Source: Nostoc sp. CMAA1605 (GTDB lineage: Bacteria; Cyanobacteriota; Cyanobacteriia; Cyanobacteriales; Nostocaceae). From it: a stretch of 64,000 nt of DNA. Position 1 is the stretch's first letter; each line of letters opens with the position of its first letter. The position numbers and the translations under genes are program-made. The notes below the pieces were generated by a model. The model saw only the letters and a list, made by a program, of their open reading frames with translations. It did not search any database and had not been told where the DNA came from. Location: contig NZ_PJIZ01000037.1 of the NCBI RefSeq assembly GCF_021596505.1, forward strand, positions 1-64,000, in the 5' to 3' direction. Of this stretch, positions 57,122-63,486 are shown in pieces.

Positions 57122-57300
57122 TGGAAGTTGAGTGTTGAGCAAGTATGGTATTGCAGTTAAACACTTAAACCCTTAAACTCCTACATCTTTAGATCCGTTT
57201 TGAATTTTGCATTCTGTAACTGGGAATACTAACCATGTAGCTATCAAGCTTTGCTGATGGTTTTGAATTGCCTGTATTTGGGAATTGGCAAAGATTCCAA

Positions 57301-59505
57301 ATGGAAACAGAGATGAAAAAGTATAAACTCAGAAAATTTACAGCCTTCCCACTACAGATGGTGCTGATTGTTCCGTTTGTGCTGCAAATTTTCGGTGCAG
57401 TGAGTTTAGTAGGCTACTTGTCCTTTAAAAATGGACGAAAAGAAGTGCAGGAATTGGTTAATAAATTGATGGATCGAACCAATGATATGGTTGAGCAACA
57501 CCTTAACTCTTATCTGGCTATTCCCCACAAGATTAACCAAATTAATGCTGATGCGATCGCAATGGGATTATTGGATGTGCGCGATCGCAAAACTCTCGGC
57601 AAGCATTTTTGGAAACTGATGCAAGTCTATGACCTAACCTACATCGGCACTGGACTGACAACAGGTGAAGGCGCAGGTGCGGCTCGTTACGATGGCAAAA
57701 CAGTAACGATTGATGATTGGGGAGCTAAGTTACCAAATAACGCCAAAAACTATGCTACTGATGACCAAGGCAATCGCACTCGCGTCAATAGCACCTACGA
57801 CTACAATAACTTTCATGAAAGTTGGTACACAGAACCAATCAAAGCAGGTAAACCTATTTGGTCACGGATCTACATTTGGAATAGTAATCAGGAATCTTAT
57901 ATTACAGCAAGTACAGGTCGTCCCATATATGATGCTCAAAACCGATTGCTGGGAATGGTTGGTTCTGATATTCATCTGTTGAAACTGAGTGAATTTTTAC
58001 GGCGGTTGGATGTTAGCCGCTCAGGACAAGTTTTCATTATGGAACGCAATGGGATGTTGATTGCCAATTCCAGCACTGAGCAACCATTCACTATAGTTAA
58101 TCAGAAGATTCAACGCTTGCAAGCTACTGACAGCCCAGATCCCGCAGTCAAAGAAATTGCCAAACAGATTCAACAACGAGTACATGGGTTGGAGTCAATT
58201 ACTGCGCCTCGGAAATTAGAACTCAAATTGCGGGGAGAACGTCATTTTGTCTATGTTACCCCCTGGCATGATCAATATGGATTAGATTGGCTGGTGGTGG
58301 TAAGTTTACCAGAAAAAGCTTTTATGGCTAACATCAATGCCAATAAACAAACTACGATCTCGCTTTGCTTAGGGGCATTAGGTACAGCAACTATCATCGG
58401 TTATCTCACATCCATCTGGATTACCCGCCCGATTTTGCGAATCAAATTGGCAAGTCAGGCGATCGCATCAGGTAAATTAGACCAAACAGTTGATCACAGT
58501 AATATTCAAGAACTTAACATCCTTGCCCAATCTTTTAATTATATGGCAGGGCAATTAAATGAACTTTTTACTGCCATTGAAGCTAGTAACACAGAACTAG
58601 AAGACAGGGTAGAAGAACGTACTATTGAACTCAAAACAACTTTAAGTGAGTTACAACGCACCCAAGCCCAGGTAATTCAAAGCGAAAAAATGTCCAGTTT
58701 GGGACAGTTAGTGGCAGGTGTCGCCCATGAAATTAATAATCCAGTGAACTTTATTCATGGCAATATTACTCACCTTCATGAGTACACTCAAGATTTGCTG
58801 AGGATGATTCACCTGTACCAAGAACGTCATCCTGATGATGACCCAGAAATAAACGCTCTAGCTGAAGAAATTGATTTAGAATTTTTGACCGACGATTTGC
58901 AGAAGATGTTATCTTCTATGAAAATGGGAACTGATCGCATCCGTAGCATTGTCCTCTCATTGCGGAATTTTTCGCGTATGGATGAGGCAGAATTTAAAGC
59001 AGTGAACATTCATGAAGGAATCGAAAGTACGCTGTTAATTCTGCAACACCGTCTAAAAAATCAACCAGAATTGCCAGCAATTGAAGTCATCCGTGACTAT
59101 GGCAATCTACCACTAGTAGAATGCTATCCTGGACAACTGAATCAAGTGTTCATGAATATTTTGGTCAACGCCATCGATGCCTTAGATGAAGTCAACCTCA
59201 AGCACACTCATGAGGAAAAAAAGGCTAATCCCAGTCAAATTACTATCCGTACATCTGCTAACGATCATCAATGGGTAGAAATTGCGATCGCTGATAATGG
59301 GACAGGAATACCTGAACCATTGAAAAACCGCATTTTTGACCCCTTCTTTACCACCAAACCCATAGGTAAAGGTACGGGAATGGGTATGGCTATCAGCTAC
59401 CAAATCATTACCGAAAAGCATGGTGGCAAATTAGAGTGCTTCTCAAAACTAGGCACAGGCACAGAGTTGATCATTCAAATACCAATCAAACAGAATGGGC
59501 ATTAG
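57301..59505 (+). CDS. Sensor histidine kinase (Cache-HAMP-HisKA-HATPase)
   Basis: A 734 aa membrane sensor. There is a TM helix at about 12-35, an extracytoplasmic dCache-type domain (about 40-340, with the VGSDIHLLKLSEFL region), and a second TM helix at about 352-374. HAMP (about 375-430), a coiled coil, and the kinase core follow, with VAHEINNP (His476), NQVFMNILVNAID, DNGTGI and GTGMGMAI. The kinase core is of the same subfamily as the giant kinase at 44597. The start is set at ATG 57301; a Met four codons later is also possible. It pairs with the PatA-type regulator just upstream. Confidence 0.9.
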   Translation: METEMKKYKLRKFTAFPLQMVLIVPFVLQIFGAVSLVGYLSFKNGRKEVQELVNKLMDRTNDMVEQHLNSYLAIPHKINQINADAIAMGLLDVRDRKTLGKHFWKLMQVYDLTYIGTGLTTGEGAGAARYDGKTVTIDDWGAKLPNNAKNYATDDQGNRTRVNSTYDYNNFHESWYTEPIKAGKPIWSRIYIWNSNQESYITASTGRPIYDAQNRLLGMVGSDIHLLKLSEFLRRLDVSRSGQVFIMERNGMLIANSSTEQPFTIVNQKIQRLQATDSPDPAVKEIAKQIQQRVHGLESITAPRKLELKLRGERHFVYVTPWHDQYGLDWLVVVSLPEKAFMANINANKQTTISLCLGALGTATIIGYLTSIWITRPILRIKLASQAIASGKLDQTVDHSNIQELNILAQSFNYMAGQLNELFTAIEASNTELEDRVEERTIELKTTLSELQRTQAQVIQSEKMSSLGQLVAGVAHEINNPVNFIHGNITHLHEYTQDLLRMIHLYQERHPDDDPEINALAEEIDLEFLTDDLQKMLSSMKMGTDRIRSIVLSLRNFSRMDEAEFKAVNIHEGIESTLLILQHRLKNQPELPAIEVIRDYGNLPLVECYPGQLNQVFMNILVNAIDALDEVNLKHTHEEKKANPSQITIRTSANDHQWVEIAIADNGTGIPEPLKNRIFDPFFTTKPIGKGTGMGMAISYQIITEKHGGKLECFSKLGTGTELIIQIPIKQNGH

Positions 59506-59528: not shown

Positions 59529-59712
59529 ACACCATTTCACGAAAAATCTGATACAGATTTAAACCTTGAAAATCTTGCTGCATCTAGGTTTTTTAATTGC
59601 GTTAGCGTAGCGGGACGTTAGTCCATTGCGTTAGCGGAAGCGGGGCGTTTAGCCCATTGCGAATTGCGAATTGCGAATTGCGAATTGCGAATTGCGAATT
59701 GCGAATTGGTAT
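59529..59712. mobile_element. MITE-like element with GCGTTAGCGG core, copy 5
   Basis: Left end ACCATTTCACGAAAA, right end GCGAATTGGTAT. The inside has GCGTTAGCGGAAGCGGGGCG then GTTTAGCCCATTGCG, the same core as at 50989, followed by six GCGAATT units. It lies between the histidine kinase and the deiminase gene. Confidence 0.5.
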
Positions 59713-59734: not shown

Positions 59735-61732
59735 TCAAGGCAAAAATGTAGGCTCAATCTCCCACCATTTTTGGGCAAAAGGTTGGCGACGTGTATTAGT
59801 TCCGCAATGAATTTCACCTCGTTTGCGGAAGTAGGGTTCCCAATCATCGATGAAGTGACAAACTAAACCCAACGGTTCTAAAACTTGTCGTACATAAGCC
59901 TCAAATTGACATTGATGATCCAACTTCGGCCCGAATGGTTTGGGAATACCAAGGTGCTGATTGAGGACAATCATGTTAACCATGTTTGGTAAAAAAGTTT
60001 CGGCTCTACCCTTGCCATCATCTCTAAATAAAGCAGGTAGTTCAATAATATCTTCGTCGCTTAATTCTAATTCTTGTTTGAGGATTTCTCGATTCCAATG
60101 AATGTGTTCTTGATATGTTTGATTTTGGTTGGTTAAATCTTGATTATCGAGAATATCTGCAATAGTAATATCGGCTGGTTTTCTGTCGAGTTTTTTGCCT
60201 TCTCTTAAGAATAATTGACCATGACCTTGCTCTCGCAGATGCTTGATAATGTTATAAGCTTGGTTGGGACTGGCTAATAGTAATTTAAATCCTTTATCGG
60301 TAGGTGCGGGGACAAAGGTCATAAACTCATCAATATGTCCTACACTTAGCCAGTCTGAAAAGATTTCTAGGGGTGCTTGAATTTTTTGAGCATAGAGAAA
60401 ATCTCGCAATACTCTTAACATCCGCCGTGGTTCGGGGATAATATCCTTGCGAGTCCCACCGAAAATCAAGCGCCCCAAGGGATAGTGAACACCTTTAACT
60501 GTCACTGGCGGAGAAACTTCTAAATTCCCAAAAGAGTCTAATTTTGTGGCTAAATAGCGACTTTTACGGGTGAGATAACCAAAGTCAATCCCTAATAGTC
60601 TGCGTTTGGGAAATTCTGCGAGTCCGCGATCGCGTGGGGAATCAAAGACGACAGGAAGTAGATGTCCTGGGGCTTGAGTGTAACCAATTTCAATCTCGTC
60701 TTGCACCCAGGGATCATCTTGATGAAACTCATAGGGGATAATATCAAGTTGAGCGTTGGCTTGAGCAACAACTTTTCTCAGTTCATCAATAAATTCTTTG
60801 TTCTCGCCAGTAGATAACCGCGAAACAAAGACTGTAATTGGCGATAAAGTATTAGGAGTCATGATCCAAGGTGCAACTCGAAATACTACGCGATCGCTAT
60901 ACACAGATTTACCATCTTTGACCAGACTTAAACTAATTTCAACTAAGCCGTCAAAATCAAAATCAGGATAACTCAACCCTTCAATCGCTAAAATAATATC
61001 CCGATCAGTATCCCTGATTCTCGCTCTAGAAATACCAGGGCCAATTAACTCATAACCGTCTCGATCTAATTCGTCATAAATGCGAATGCGCTGGGTAGTG
61101 TCTTTACTAACTGATAACTCTAGTTCATATCCAGCCGGTAAATTTCTCAGCCCAGCTTTACGCACAATCATGAAGCTAAAATCTTTCAGGTCAAGTAGTC
61201 CTTGAATTAAACTCGCTTCGTTATCACTCCGACCATCAGAATAAACGATATCGCGATCGCTATTCACTAATAAAACTGCACCATGGCCATTACTTCCCCA
61301 TTCCCAATCACTTTTATGGGGGTTGTTAGCTTCAATAATCCCGTCTCTATCAGCATCAACATCAAGACAAACTTGCACTGCCGTCAAATCAATCCGCAAT
61401 TGTTTGAGCAGACTACCATGATCATCTTGAAAAGTAATTTGTAAACTCCGGTCTGCAATTTGATCACTAAATGTTCTAGCTAGCAGATAAATTTGCGGAA
61501 TTTGTGTGAGAAACAAGGGAGTTTGTGTAGCAATTACTTGGTGATGATCACCCAATAATTCTATTTCTCCTGTTGTTTTAAAAATCACGACTGTACTTTG
61601 TGGTGGAGCTAGCGTTTTTAAAGAAATTTGCACTAGTCTACCAACTACAAGTACATCTTCATAGTTACCACTACGTTTTCTATTACTCAAGCGATGCTCA
61701 TCTAAGGCTGCCAATTCTAGTAATTCAGTCAT
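59735..61732 (-). CDS. Protein-arginine deiminase (PAD family)
   Basis: A 665 aa enzyme of the PAD family, converting protein arginine to citrulline in a calcium-dependent reaction. All four catalytic residues align with human PAD4 (Asp350, His471, Asp473, Cys645): Asp345 in WVQDEIEIGY, His466 and Asp468 in VGHIDEFM, and Cys643 in GEIHCGTNT. The middle domain has an Asp/Asn-rich stretch (DVDADRDGIIEANN, about 125-138) resembling the PAD calcium sites. Length equals that of animal PADs (about 663). The N-terminal domain is beta-rich and weakly conserved. It has no close partner gene and its own upstream region. The physiological target in cyanobacteria is not known. It lacks a signal peptide, so it should act in the cytoplasm. 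Confidence 0.92.
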   Translation of the reverse strand: MTELLELAALDEHRLSNRKRSGNYEDVLVVGRLVQISLKTLAPPQSTVVIFKTTGEIELLGDHHQVIATQTPLFLTQIPQIYLLARTFSDQIADRSLQITFQDDHGSLLKQLRIDLTAVQVCLDVDADRDGIIEANNPHKSDWEWGSNGHGAVLLVNSDRDIVYSDGRSDNEASLIQGLLDLKDFSFMIVRKAGLRNLPAGYELELSVSKDTTQRIRIYDELDRDGYELIGPGISRARIRDTDRDIILAIEGLSYPDFDFDGLVEISLSLVKDGKSVYSDRVVFRVAPWIMTPNTLSPITVFVSRLSTGENKEFIDELRKVVAQANAQLDIIPYEFHQDDPWVQDEIEIGYTQAPGHLLPVVFDSPRDRGLAEFPKRRLLGIDFGYLTRKSRYLATKLDSFGNLEVSPPVTVKGVHYPLGRLIFGGTRKDIIPEPRRMLRVLRDFLYAQKIQAPLEIFSDWLSVGHIDEFMTFVPAPTDKGFKLLLASPNQAYNIIKHLREQGHGQLFLREGKKLDRKPADITIADILDNQDLTNQNQTYQEHIHWNREILKQELELSDEDIIELPALFRDDGKGRAETFLPNMVNMIVLNQHLGIPKPFGPKLDHQCQFEAYVRQVLEPLGLVCHFIDDWEPYFRKRGEIHCGTNTRRQPFAQKWWEIEPTFLP

Positions 61733-62444
61733 AAGATTAATTGAGTTTATCTTGCTATAGAACAGACTTCAACTAACTAAACCACCTTAATCGCTTTGAA
61801 ATGATTTTGAGAATTTGTTGATTTTTTTTAGAAAAACGAAATATTGCTAAATTTACTTATGTTGTCTCACTGATTCTATACTAATTTCAAAAATTGATAA
61901 CAATTTGATTAATAAATTTTTCTGATACAAGTAGCCATCATGAACCGCGTATACAAGAAGACATGAAAAAGTCTTTCCCTCACACCCCTTTTTCAATTCA
62001 GATATACTACTTATCCCTATTTATGATCACGAACAATCCACAATAATTTTTAATATACTTAATTTAATTTATACACTCTATTTGGAGTGACGCACTTTTG
62101 GGAAAAACCCTATCTTTCTCAATCAGCACCTTGTTCTTATATTTAAATGTAGCCGGAAAAGCCTATTTACTAAAGTCTTGATAGAATGCTATAGCGTTTC
62201 CTAGTCTACTGAAGTACAAATTTATCCGCTTACCCTGCGGGAAGCAAGCTATATCTGTGTTCATCTGCGTTTAATTATTGTCCTTTGTACGTCACTAGGG
62301 TAAAAAAGGCTATAATATCCTAATTAAATAATTAAATACGCTAAGTCTACTGATTTATAGTAGATTTTAATGTATTATCAACTTAGCTAACACAGCATTA
62401 GGACTAATCAGCTTAATATTTTACATAGTCAAGTGTAAAAATCT
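61733..62444. other. Long AT-rich intergenic region
   Basis: About 710 bases upstream of the deiminase gene (minus) and the small ORF (plus). It is AT-rich, with no repeats of the types seen elsewhere apart from weak dyads. No gene or RNA structure could be supported by eye. Confidence 0.45.
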
Positions 62445-62627
62445 ATGTTGGAATTTTTATTTCAGCACACGATGATCTATTGGCGAAAACCGTTAACTAA
62501 GAGATTTGCCAGTCAAAATTATTTACTATCAATTCCTTCTATAAAATTGCTGGGAGTGTTTATTAGTGGTTTAATATTCAGTTTTTTATTTACCGTTAAA
62601 GAATCGATGTTAATACCTGAGCAATAG
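62445..62627 (+). CDS. Small putative membrane protein, 60 aa
   Basis: An ATG-started frame encodes 60 residues with one hydrophobic segment (LLGVFISGLIFSFLFTV, about residues 35-51) and a basic N-terminal half. It lies 36 bases upstream of the nitroreductase gene on the same strand. No family is recognised, and AT-rich DNA readily gives such frames, so it may be spurious. Confidence 0.25.
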   Translation: MLEFLFQHTMIYWRKPLTKRFASQNYLLSIPSIKLLGVFISGLIFSFLFTVKESMLIPEQ

Positions 62628-62663
62628 GCCGCTTTTTCACCTAAAATCTAATAATTTGTAATT

Positions 62664-63486
62664 ATGACTAATCCTACTGATTTGCTTCATCGTCGCTATG
62701 GTGTAGACGCATTTAATGCAGATATTCCTTGGAACCAGACAATATCTAATTTGCTCTCTCACCGTTCCATTCGCGCTTACCTGAATGATCCTCTACCAAC
62801 AAACACTCTGGAAACTTTGATAGCATCTGCACAATCAGCATCTACTTCCTCTAATCTCCAGACGTGGAGTGTAGTTGCTGTTCAAGATACGACACGCAAG
62901 GAGAAGTTATCACAGTTGGCGAATAACCAAGCACATATTCGCCAGTGTCCTTTATTTTTGGTGTGGTTAGCAGATTTGGCAAGATTAACACACATTGCTG
63001 AAAACCAAGGATTACCCCATGAAGGTTTGAATTACCTGGAAATGTTCTTGATGGCGGCTATTGATGCTACATTAGCAGCACAAAATGCGGCGATCGCTGC
63101 TGAATCTTTGGGTTTGGGAACAGTCTACATTGGTGCATTACGTAATCGTCCAGAAGCAGTAGCAGAGGTTTTGAATTTACCACCCCATGTTGTTGCGGTG
63201 TTTGGGTTGTGTGTGGGTTATGCAGATTCATCTATTAATGTAGAAGTGAAACCACGTTTACCCCAAGCGGCCGGTATTACATCGGGAGACTTATCAGTTA
63301 GAAACACAAAAACAGGAAATTGAACTGTATAACCAAATCATGAAACAATTTTACAGTTCTCAACAGATGAATGTTGGTGGTGATTGGTCAGAACATTCAG
63401 CTAAACGCATAGCATTTCCTGAATCTCTATCGGGACGCGATCGCCTGCGAGAAGCCTTGAACAATCTGGGGTTTGAATTGCTTTAA
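62664..63486 (+). CDS. Nitroreductase family FMN oxidoreductase, with apparent +1 frameshift
   Basis: An NfrA-type NAD(P)H:flavin/nitro reductase of about 273 aa once repaired. Family signs are HRSIRAYLNDPLP at residues 31-43, SASTSSNLQTWSVVAV, AAIAAESLGLGTVYIGALRN and VFGLCVGYAD. The open frame ends at 63323 after KPRLPQAAG with a foreign tail. Removing one G of the GG at 63273-63274 continues the frame through VLHRETYQLETQ and on to a stop at 63484-63486 (end NNLGFELL), restoring the expected C-terminus. The break is either a sequencing error or a mutation that truncates about 50 residues of dimer-forming C-terminus. Confidence 0.85.

What the first reader, a model, noticed from the sequence alone, without database searches (positions are those of the whole stretch)
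59735..61732. Full-length protein-arginine deiminase in a cyanobacterium
The gene encodes a PAD of the same length as animal enzymes, with the complete catalytic set (Asp345, His466, Asp468, Cys643) and an Asp-rich calcium-site-like segment. Animal PADs are thought to derive from cyanobacterial genes by horizontal transfer, so each bacterial copy with intact catalytic and calcium residues helps define what the ancestral enzyme did. Nothing in the neighbourhood explains its target, which suggests a stand-alone protein-modification system.
Basis: partly seen in the sequence, partly recalled or inferred. Interest (0 to 1): 0.72.

Follow-up and report, generated by a model that had tools for sequence, protein, structure and literature searches.

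The report
Animal-type protein-arginine deiminase in a cyanobacterium
The gene encodes an intact enzyme of the kind that turns arginine into citrulline inside proteins; such enzymes are already described in cyanobacteria and one has been shown to work, so this is a new copy of a known thing.

Summary
Window 59735-61732 (minus strand) encodes a 665-aa protein-arginine deiminase (PAD): Pfam PAD 524.8 bits, PAD_M 153.6 bits; 266 of 570 aligned residues match human PAD2. D345, H466, D468 and C643 fall on the PAD2 catalytic residues and are invariant in 37 of 37 animal-type cyanobacterial rows. Ligands of calcium sites 1-4 and 6 are present; site 5 seems to lack one. dN/dS is 0.10-0.15. No gene recurs beside it across 42 loci; the target is unknown.

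It is not new in kind: Cummings et al. 2021 (PMC8826395) described this clade and showed the Cyanothece 8801 enzyme to be active and calcium-dependent.

Added here: the gene is patchy (5 of 13 genus genomes), lies in different contexts within the genus and is broken in some genomes; 16 of 37 rows carry Arg instead of Gln at a calcium-1 ligand position, one clade; and a divergent long PAD sits in the cargo slot of a toxin-like cassette in four other cyanobacteria, two of which also hold the animal type. The last is the most novel item but lies outside the window.

The parts
59735..61732 (-). type-I (animal-type) protein-arginine deiminase gene, 665 aa
   Evidence: ORF; PF03068 524.8 bits, PF08527 153.6 bits; PDB PAD2 chains at 548.8-554.6 bits
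61388..61732 (-). N-terminal ~115 residues: probable degenerate PAD_N (cupredoxin-like) region
   Evidence: no Pfam PAD_N hit; predicted beta-rich with block-mean pLDDT 75-88 over residues 21-120; most structural alignments to PADs start at model residue 1 against chain residue 3, on a poor overall model
60917..61378 (-). PAD_M middle domain, residues 119-272
   Evidence: PF08527 153.6 bits
61181..61363 (-). calcium-site segment, residues 124-184: D126/D128/D130/E134 (site 6), N157/D159/D161/D170/D181/D184 (sites 3/4)
   Evidence: alignment with PAD2; conservation in 37 rows; site names recalled
59759..60904 (-). PAD catalytic domain, residues 277-658
   Evidence: PF03068
60698..60700 (-). catalytic Asp345
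   Evidence: invariant 37 of 37
60701..60703 (-). Gln344, calcium-site-1 ligand position (PAD2 Q350); Gln in 21 and Arg in 16 of 37 type-I rows
60335..60337 (-). catalytic His466
60329..60331 (-). catalytic Asp468
59804..59806 (-). catalytic nucleophile Cys643

Best explanation
The gene encodes a cytosolic, calcium-gated protein-arginine deiminase of the animal/late-cyanobacterial three-domain clade (Cummings clade Ai). Calcium binding at sites 1-4 and 6 would order the active-site cleft; Cys643 would attack the guanidinium carbon of a protein arginine held by D345 and D468, with H466 as acid/base, releasing ammonia and leaving peptidyl-citrulline, which removes a positive charge from the target. 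Shown here: fold family, catalytic set, most calcium ligands, purifying selection, closer kinship with human PAD2 than other cyanobacterial PADs have, no conserved partner gene. Inferred: activity and calcium dependence (shown in print for the Cyanothece 8801 relative only), cytosolic location (no obvious leader by eye), and use under a calcium rise such as stress or damage. The target is unknown. The gene behaves as an accessory gene that is lost, broken and found in different contexts, and whose tree suggests transfer between cyanobacterial families.
For: PF03068 and PF08527 well over cut-off. Best PAD2 chain 554.6 bits over residues 87-662, against 174.9 bits for a type-II PAD (L075) and 94.0 bits for a type-III PAD (L067) of other cyanobacteria with the same PDB set. 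Catalytic residues map one to one and are invariant in 37 of 37 intact rows. Calcium positions of sites 1, 2, 3, 4 and 6 filled by suitable residues, switch residue PAD2 D389 = D383. Tree: human PAD2 joins type I with support 100/99, away from types II and III. dN/dS (Nei-Gojobori) 0.143, 0.122, 0.109, 0.105, 0.108, 0.148 against six relatives (dS is above 1.2 in three of them, so those are rough). Published activity in the clade (PMC8826395, passages).
Against: No biochemistry for this protein. Site 5: PAD2 D169 aligns with A173, in a loop whose alignment is uncertain. The structure model is poor (mean pLDDT 47.0, pTM 0.38), so calcium sites and Cys643 could not be superposed. The tree program warned that PAD2 sits on a long branch (1.08) and that such joins may be false. 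A small-molecule substrate is not formally excluded.
Confidence: 0.87

Rival explanations
1. A guanidine-modifying enzyme that works on a small molecule (free arginine, agmatine) rather than on proteins, using the same pentein active site.
For: The catalytic fold is shared with arginine and agmatine deiminases (recalled; related enzymes are named in PMC8826395, passages). No protein target is known and no partner gene is conserved.
Against: The protein with its PAD_M aligns with PADs; R367 and R369, aligned with the PAD4 substrate-backbone-binding arginines by my recollection, are invariant in 37 of 37; the related Cyanothece enzyme citrullinates proteins (PMC8826395).
Confidence: 0.05
2. A decaying or catalytically idle gene, kept for a while after horizontal transfer.
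For: Patchy presence (5 of 13 genus genomes, 26 of 217 family genomes); in-frame stops in G554 and G005 and fragments only in G434 and G470; an N-terminally short reading frame in G724; site 5 apparently incomplete.
Against: The window copy is intact; dN/dS 0.10-0.15 against six intact relatives; catalytic residues invariant in 37 of 37 intact rows (six broken, fragmentary or cut rows were left out before that count).
Confidence: 0.05
3. An effector used in conflict with other cells (released on lysis or delivered), of which the animal enzyme is a descendant.
For: A divergent PAD occupies the cargo slot of a toxin-like cassette in four cyanobacteria, with Ntox11 in a leader-like protein of the cassette of another genome. 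Type I itself is accessory and found in different contexts.
Against: The type-I protein has no such leader, and the window's genome has no match to the ~660-aa cassette protein; padloc finds nothing in the window protein at E up to 0.01. The link from type III to type I is by family only; one type-I genome (G789) does have a cassette protein, on another contig.
Confidence: 0.03

Closest known systems
cyanoPADI of Cyanothece sp. PCC 8801 (Cummings et al. 2021, PMC8826395)
   Same: Same clade, PAD_M + PAD_C plus degenerate PAD_N as published, same catalytic set; probably the protein at L052 (genome G143), 55-56% identical to the window protein. That G143 is PCC 8801 is recalled from its chromosome length only.
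   Different: The window copy comes from a Nostocaceae-type genome (a genus mate, G024, has the contig length of Trichormus sp. M33_DOE_039) and has not been assayed.
Human PAD2 (PDB 4n20 and others)
   Same: 266 of 570 aligned residues identical; catalytic residues and calcium-site positions 1, 2, 3, 4, 6.
   Different: PAD2 E158 is D161 here; D169 of site 5 aligns with A173; PAD_N not recognised by Pfam. Arg at 367 and 369 as in the PAD4 chain; PAD2 has Gly at the second position.
Type-II PADs of other cyanobacteria (e.g. L075, L079, L080)
   Same: PAD catalytic domain in the five type-II proteins scanned besides L085, and a weak PAD_M in three of them.
   Different: 26-32% identical over the aligned part in 15 rows; the calcium-site-2 Glu346 position is Thr, Ser or Ala in 15 of 15; the catalytic Cys is kept in 9 of 15.
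Type-III long PADs (L067-L070)
   Same: All four catalytic residues in 4 of 4.
   Different: A leader of about 320-350 aa, and only some 40-55 aa between it and PAD_M in the three proteins where both ends were placed, too little for PAD_N; cassette context.

Membership tests
Three-domain (clade Ai) protein-arginine deiminase | PAD catalytic domain PF03068 | tested here: met
   524.8 bits against cut-off 25
Three-domain (clade Ai) protein-arginine deiminase | PAD_M domain PF08527 | tested here: met
   153.6 bits against cut-off 24.8
Three-domain (clade Ai) protein-arginine deiminase | N-terminal PAD_N (degenerate in cyanobacteria) | tested here: inconclusive
   No Pfam hit; N-terminal region modelled as beta-rich, block-mean pLDDT 75-88 over residues 21-120; most alignments to PADs begin at model residue 1, but the model as a whole is poor
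Three-domain (clade Ai) protein-arginine deiminase | Catalytic Asp, His, Asp, Cys | tested here: met
   D345, H466, D468, C643 aligned with PAD2 D351, H471, D473, C647
Three-domain (clade Ai) protein-arginine deiminase | Calcium sites 2 and 4 with switch residue D389, said to be exclusive to the clade (PMC8826395, section 7) | tested here: met
   E346, D364, S365, D368; D159, D161, D184, D383. Against exclusivity: 12 of 15 type-II rows also have Asp at the D383 column
Three-domain (clade Ai) protein-arginine deiminase | Calcium site 5 (called 'likely conserved' in PMC8826395, not given as defining) | tested here: inconclusive
   PAD2 D169 aligns with A173 in the window protein; the loop alignment is uncertain and the column varies within type I
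Three-domain (clade Ai) protein-arginine deiminase | Groups with animal PADs to the exclusion of other bacterial PADs | tested here: met
   100/99 with one animal row (human PAD2) in a 57-row tree, with a long-branch warning; fungal and actinobacterial PADs were not included
Three-domain (clade Ai) protein-arginine deiminase | Calcium-dependent citrullination of proteins | not testable with these tools
   Published for the Cyanothece 8801 relative (passages)

The most novel reading that the evidence does not exclude
Cyanobacterial PADs are, as a family, accessory weapons or damage-response enzymes rather than regulators: type III is an interchangeable cargo domain of a toxin-like cassette, and the animal-type PAD of this window is a free-standing, mobile relative of such effectors, so that animals may have acquired citrullination from a conflict enzyme.
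Probability: 0.08. Interest if true: 0.75.

Novelty: new member of a known kind. Interest (0 to 1): 0.3.

Why it matters
As a further intact, animal-type PAD it adds a Nostocaceae-type host in which to ask what citrullination does in bacteria, a question that Cummings et al. leave open (PMC8826395, section 10 part 1). The wider comparison gives three testable points: a natural Gln-to-Arg change at a calcium-1 ligand position in 16 of 37 rows, a PAD tree that does not follow the families, and two genomes that hold two PAD types although the published survey saw no species with both of its types.

Tried and rejected
Conserved partner gene: 42 type-I loci (window included), up to about 10 kb on each side, many shorter because contigs end; the largest non-PAD family is in 7 of 42 loci, ABC-transporter ATPases by eye, at scattered places. 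A local exception: a Dopa 4,5-dioxygenase-family gene followed by a SnoaL-like gene lies downstream on the same strand in L053, L055, L056, L059 and L063 (Pfam names, where 4 members matched each; L063 was not scanned), which are the 5 type-I genomes of GTDB family f3; rejected as a general partner. Pfam theme among nearest neighbours: 136 of the 156 neighbour ORFs listed were scanned (74 + 62); the 20 left out are 18 from the loci L043, L049, L050, L063 and L066 and two short ORFs (L026, L055); the window's own neighbours were not in this scan. No family is in more than 4 members of either set.

Structure: one AlphaFold2 job with 15 close sequences gave mean pLDDT 47.0 and pTM 0.38. Foldseek and VIA-align 2 list PADs first (best Foldseek E 6.5e-42 with TM 0.36; best VIA-align Z 20.1 over 358 residues at rmsd 20.9), but the rmsd shows that the model cannot be used to superpose calcium sites.

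Defence reading for the window gene: padloc finds nothing at E up to 0.01. Second PAD in the window genome: none.

Work on cyanobacterial citrullination in the host: searches 'peptidylarginine deiminase' + 'cyanobacteri' (43 papers, 30 listed) and 'citrullination' + 'cyanobacteri' from 2022 (38 papers, 25 listed); from titles and abstract starts I saw no study of a cyanobacterial PAD in its own host. PAD as a polymorphic toxin: the search 'polymorphic toxin' + 'arginine deiminase' gave one paper (PMC4770681, listing only); in Zhang et al. 2012 (PMC3482391, passages only) the words deiminase and peptidylarginine do not occur in the first 300,000 of 357,715 characters.

Recalled, from no call: the lengths of human PADs, the residue lists of the calcium sites, the role of the PAD4 arginines, the identity of G143, the arginine-methyltransferase kinship of Methyltransf_28, the heptamer repeat class. 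Histidine-kinase-like and nitroreductase-like are readings by eye.

Full report
What is there. The reading frame at 59735-61732 on the minus strand encodes 665 aa. Pfam finds PAD (524.8 bits, residues 277-658) and PAD_M (153.6 bits, residues 119-272) and no PAD_N up to E 1. In the PDB sequence set 27 distinct sequences match at E up to 0.001, all of them named protein-arginine deiminases; PAD2 chains score 548.8-554.6 bits over residues 87-662. Counted on the printed alignment, 266 of 570 aligned residues are identical (196 of 381 in the catalytic part, 62 of 157 in the middle part).

Catalytic and calcium residues. The list of calcium ligands by site is from memory (PAD2/PAD4 structures); a figure legend in PMC13023937 (passages) names matching PAD4 positions for sites 1-4 (it prints Glu349 for the site-1 residue that aligns with PAD2 Q350), and for site 5 Asn153, Asp165, Asp168 and Glu252. 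PDB titles of PAD2 mutants (Q350A, E354A, D123N, D169A, D177A) show that such positions were chosen for study. In the window protein the positions of site 1 (Q344, E348, E405), site 2 (E346, D364, S365, D368), site 3 (N157, D159, D161, D170, D181, D184), site 4 (D159, D161, D184, D383) and site 6 (D126, D128, D130, E134) carry suitable residues; at site 5 the PAD2 D169 position is A173, in a loop whose alignment is uncertain.

Conservation. Six of the 42 loci were dropped because broken, fragmentary, shortened or cut by a contig end (L032, L043, L049, L050, L063, L066). The catalytic residues are invariant in 37 of 37. Most calcium positions are nearly constant; D170 and the site-5 loop vary. 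Position 344, next to the catalytic Asp, is Gln in 21 and Arg in 16 of 37. The 16 Arg rows are one clade (100/99) and need one change on the tree. The published statement that site 1 appears fully conserved (PMC8826395, section 7) is therefore too simple for this clade.

Kinship. In a 57-row tree (37 type I, 15 type II, 4 type III, human PAD2) PAD2 joins type I with 100/99, and the 37 type-I rows group with 91/95. The program warned of long branches, PAD2 among them, and of odd letter make-up in 12 rows of types II and III. The best PAD2 chain scores 554.6 bits with the window protein, 174.9 with a type-II PAD (L075) and 94.0 with a type-III PAD (L067). This agrees with the published result that animal PADs are closer to this cyanobacterial type than other cyanobacterial PADs are. 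With one animal row and no fungal or actinobacterial rows, direction and root are not tested here. The 23 rows of GTDB family f1, the window's family (L016 was counted as f1 by assumption), do not form one clade: PADs of families f3, f4, f11 and f46 lie inside, and holding f1 together is rejected with p-AU 0.0127 (the test was chosen after the tree was seen, which weakens it). That does not agree with the published remark that the cyanobacterial PAD tree mirrors the expected species tree (section 10, part 1) and suggests transfer between families.

Distribution and mobility. PF03068 is found in 25 of 386 genomes drawn over the phylum, 26 of 217 of the family and 105 of 388 drawn over the order (24 of these genomes have a match over 400 bits, type I by score), in 5 of 13 genomes of the genus, and in 0 of 14 control genomes. 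The right-hand flank, which is upstream of PAD (62400-63400, a nitroreductase-like gene by eye), has a match in 9 of 13 genus genomes. It lies beside PAD in the window genome and G340; in the other three PAD-bearing genomes of the genus (G024, G550, G554) the fetched surroundings of PAD match the window only over the PAD gene itself (in G024 with about 190 bases of upstream sequence), and the flank is on another contig without PAD nearby. In G340 the histidine-kinase-like gene at 57268-59505 is missing between the shared blocks. Copies with an in-frame stop (G554, G005) or only fragments (G434, G470) exist. Purifying selection is nevertheless clear in six intact comparisons: dN/dS 0.105-0.148 (dS above 1.2 in three).

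Neighbourhood. Across 42 loci no non-PAD family recurs in more than 7. Among 136 of 156 listed nearest neighbours, no Pfam family is in more than 4 of a set. In the five type-I genomes of family f3 a Dopa-dioxygenase-like and a SnoaL-like gene follow PAD.

Mechanism. Calcium-gated hydrolysis of protein arginine to citrulline through Cys643 is by far the best reading. It rests on family knowledge and on the published assay of the Cyanothece 8801 enzyme (absolute dependence on calcium; passages); nothing was assayed for this protein. When the enzyme would be switched on, and on what, is inference.

Outside the window: a PAD in a toxin-like cassette. Four genomes of GTDB family f10 (G626, G731, G703, G726; the 4 of 20 family genomes with any PAD) carry PADs of 994-1083 aa (type III). 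All four catalytic residues are present in 4 of 4. Where the contigs show it, the gene order is conserved: subtilase, SBBP-like genes, ~596 aa, ~355 aa, ~660 aa, one or two variable genes, ~95-99 aa, ~250-270 aa, a protein with an NRLLxLExEL start, the PAD, and a protein with Methyltransf_28 (33.9 bits) and TPRs in L068 (in G626 the cassette is on two contigs, L067 and L105, with no variable gene called on L105). A match to the ~660-aa protein is found in 10 of 388 order genomes; the window genome has none. Of these ten, eight also have a PF03068 match somewhere (four of them by way of type III), two (G433, G746) are not among the genomes with a match. In G624 and G647 the gene in the PAD slot has a leader of about 320 aa that is 34-43% identical to the PAD leaders and no PAD domain at E up to 0.01. 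In G433 a leader-like protein ends in Ntox11 (101.1 bits); its leader similarity to the PAD leaders is weak (best E 1.25e-4 with low-complexity filtering off). This looks like a constant leader with interchangeable cargo, PAD being one cargo. Zhang et al. 2012 list Ntox11 among polymorphic-toxin domains (passages). Delivery and toxicity are inference. G626 and G731 hold both type I and type III; Cummings et al. write that no species was seen to have both of their PAD types, and that type III belongs to their two-domain type is my inference.

Type II. In 15 sampled type-II rows the catalytic Cys column holds Cys in 9, the His column His in 12 and the first Asp column Asp in 13, so some may be inactive; alignment error cannot be excluded for the most divergent rows. 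This stands against the published statement that all catalytic residues are conserved among PAD homologues (section 7).

Verdict. Ordinary in kind, well founded as an observation; the comparison adds details worth following, the type-III cassette above all.

Noticed in passing
L067 3188-6439, L068 8117-11101, L069 8707-11874, L070 7766-10900 (genomes G626, G731, G703, G726): Long type-III PADs sit as the cargo of a conserved subtilase-containing, toxin-like cassette; other genomes have the leader with an unknown C-terminus (G624), the leader alone (G647) or a leader-like protein ending in Ntox11 (G433).
   Followed up: partly
G626 (L051, L067) and G731 (L054, L068): Two genomes of one genus carry both a type-I and a type-III PAD, although a published survey saw no species with both of its PAD types.
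   Followed up: partly
window 60701-60703 and the same column of alignment A2: Calcium-site-1 ligand position Gln344 is Arg in 16 of 37 type-I PADs, one clade.
   Followed up: partly
L079, L080 and other type-II PADs: The catalytic Cys is kept in 9 of 15 sampled type-II rows; N-termini of some look like export signals by eye.
   Followed up: no
L053, L055, L056, L059, L063: A Dopa 4,5-dioxygenase-family gene and a SnoaL-like gene follow PAD on the same strand in these five loci.
   Followed up: no
L068 6491-8083 and its relatives in L067, L069, L070: Beside the type-III PAD lies a protein with Methyltransf_28 (33.9 bits in L068) and TPRs; relatives of this family include an arginine methyltransferase (recalled), so a paired arginine-modifying step is possible.
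   Followed up: no
window, about 59657-59706: Short tandem GCGAATT-type heptamer repeats next to the 3' end of the gene, of a kind known in heterocystous cyanobacteria (recalled).
   Followed up: no
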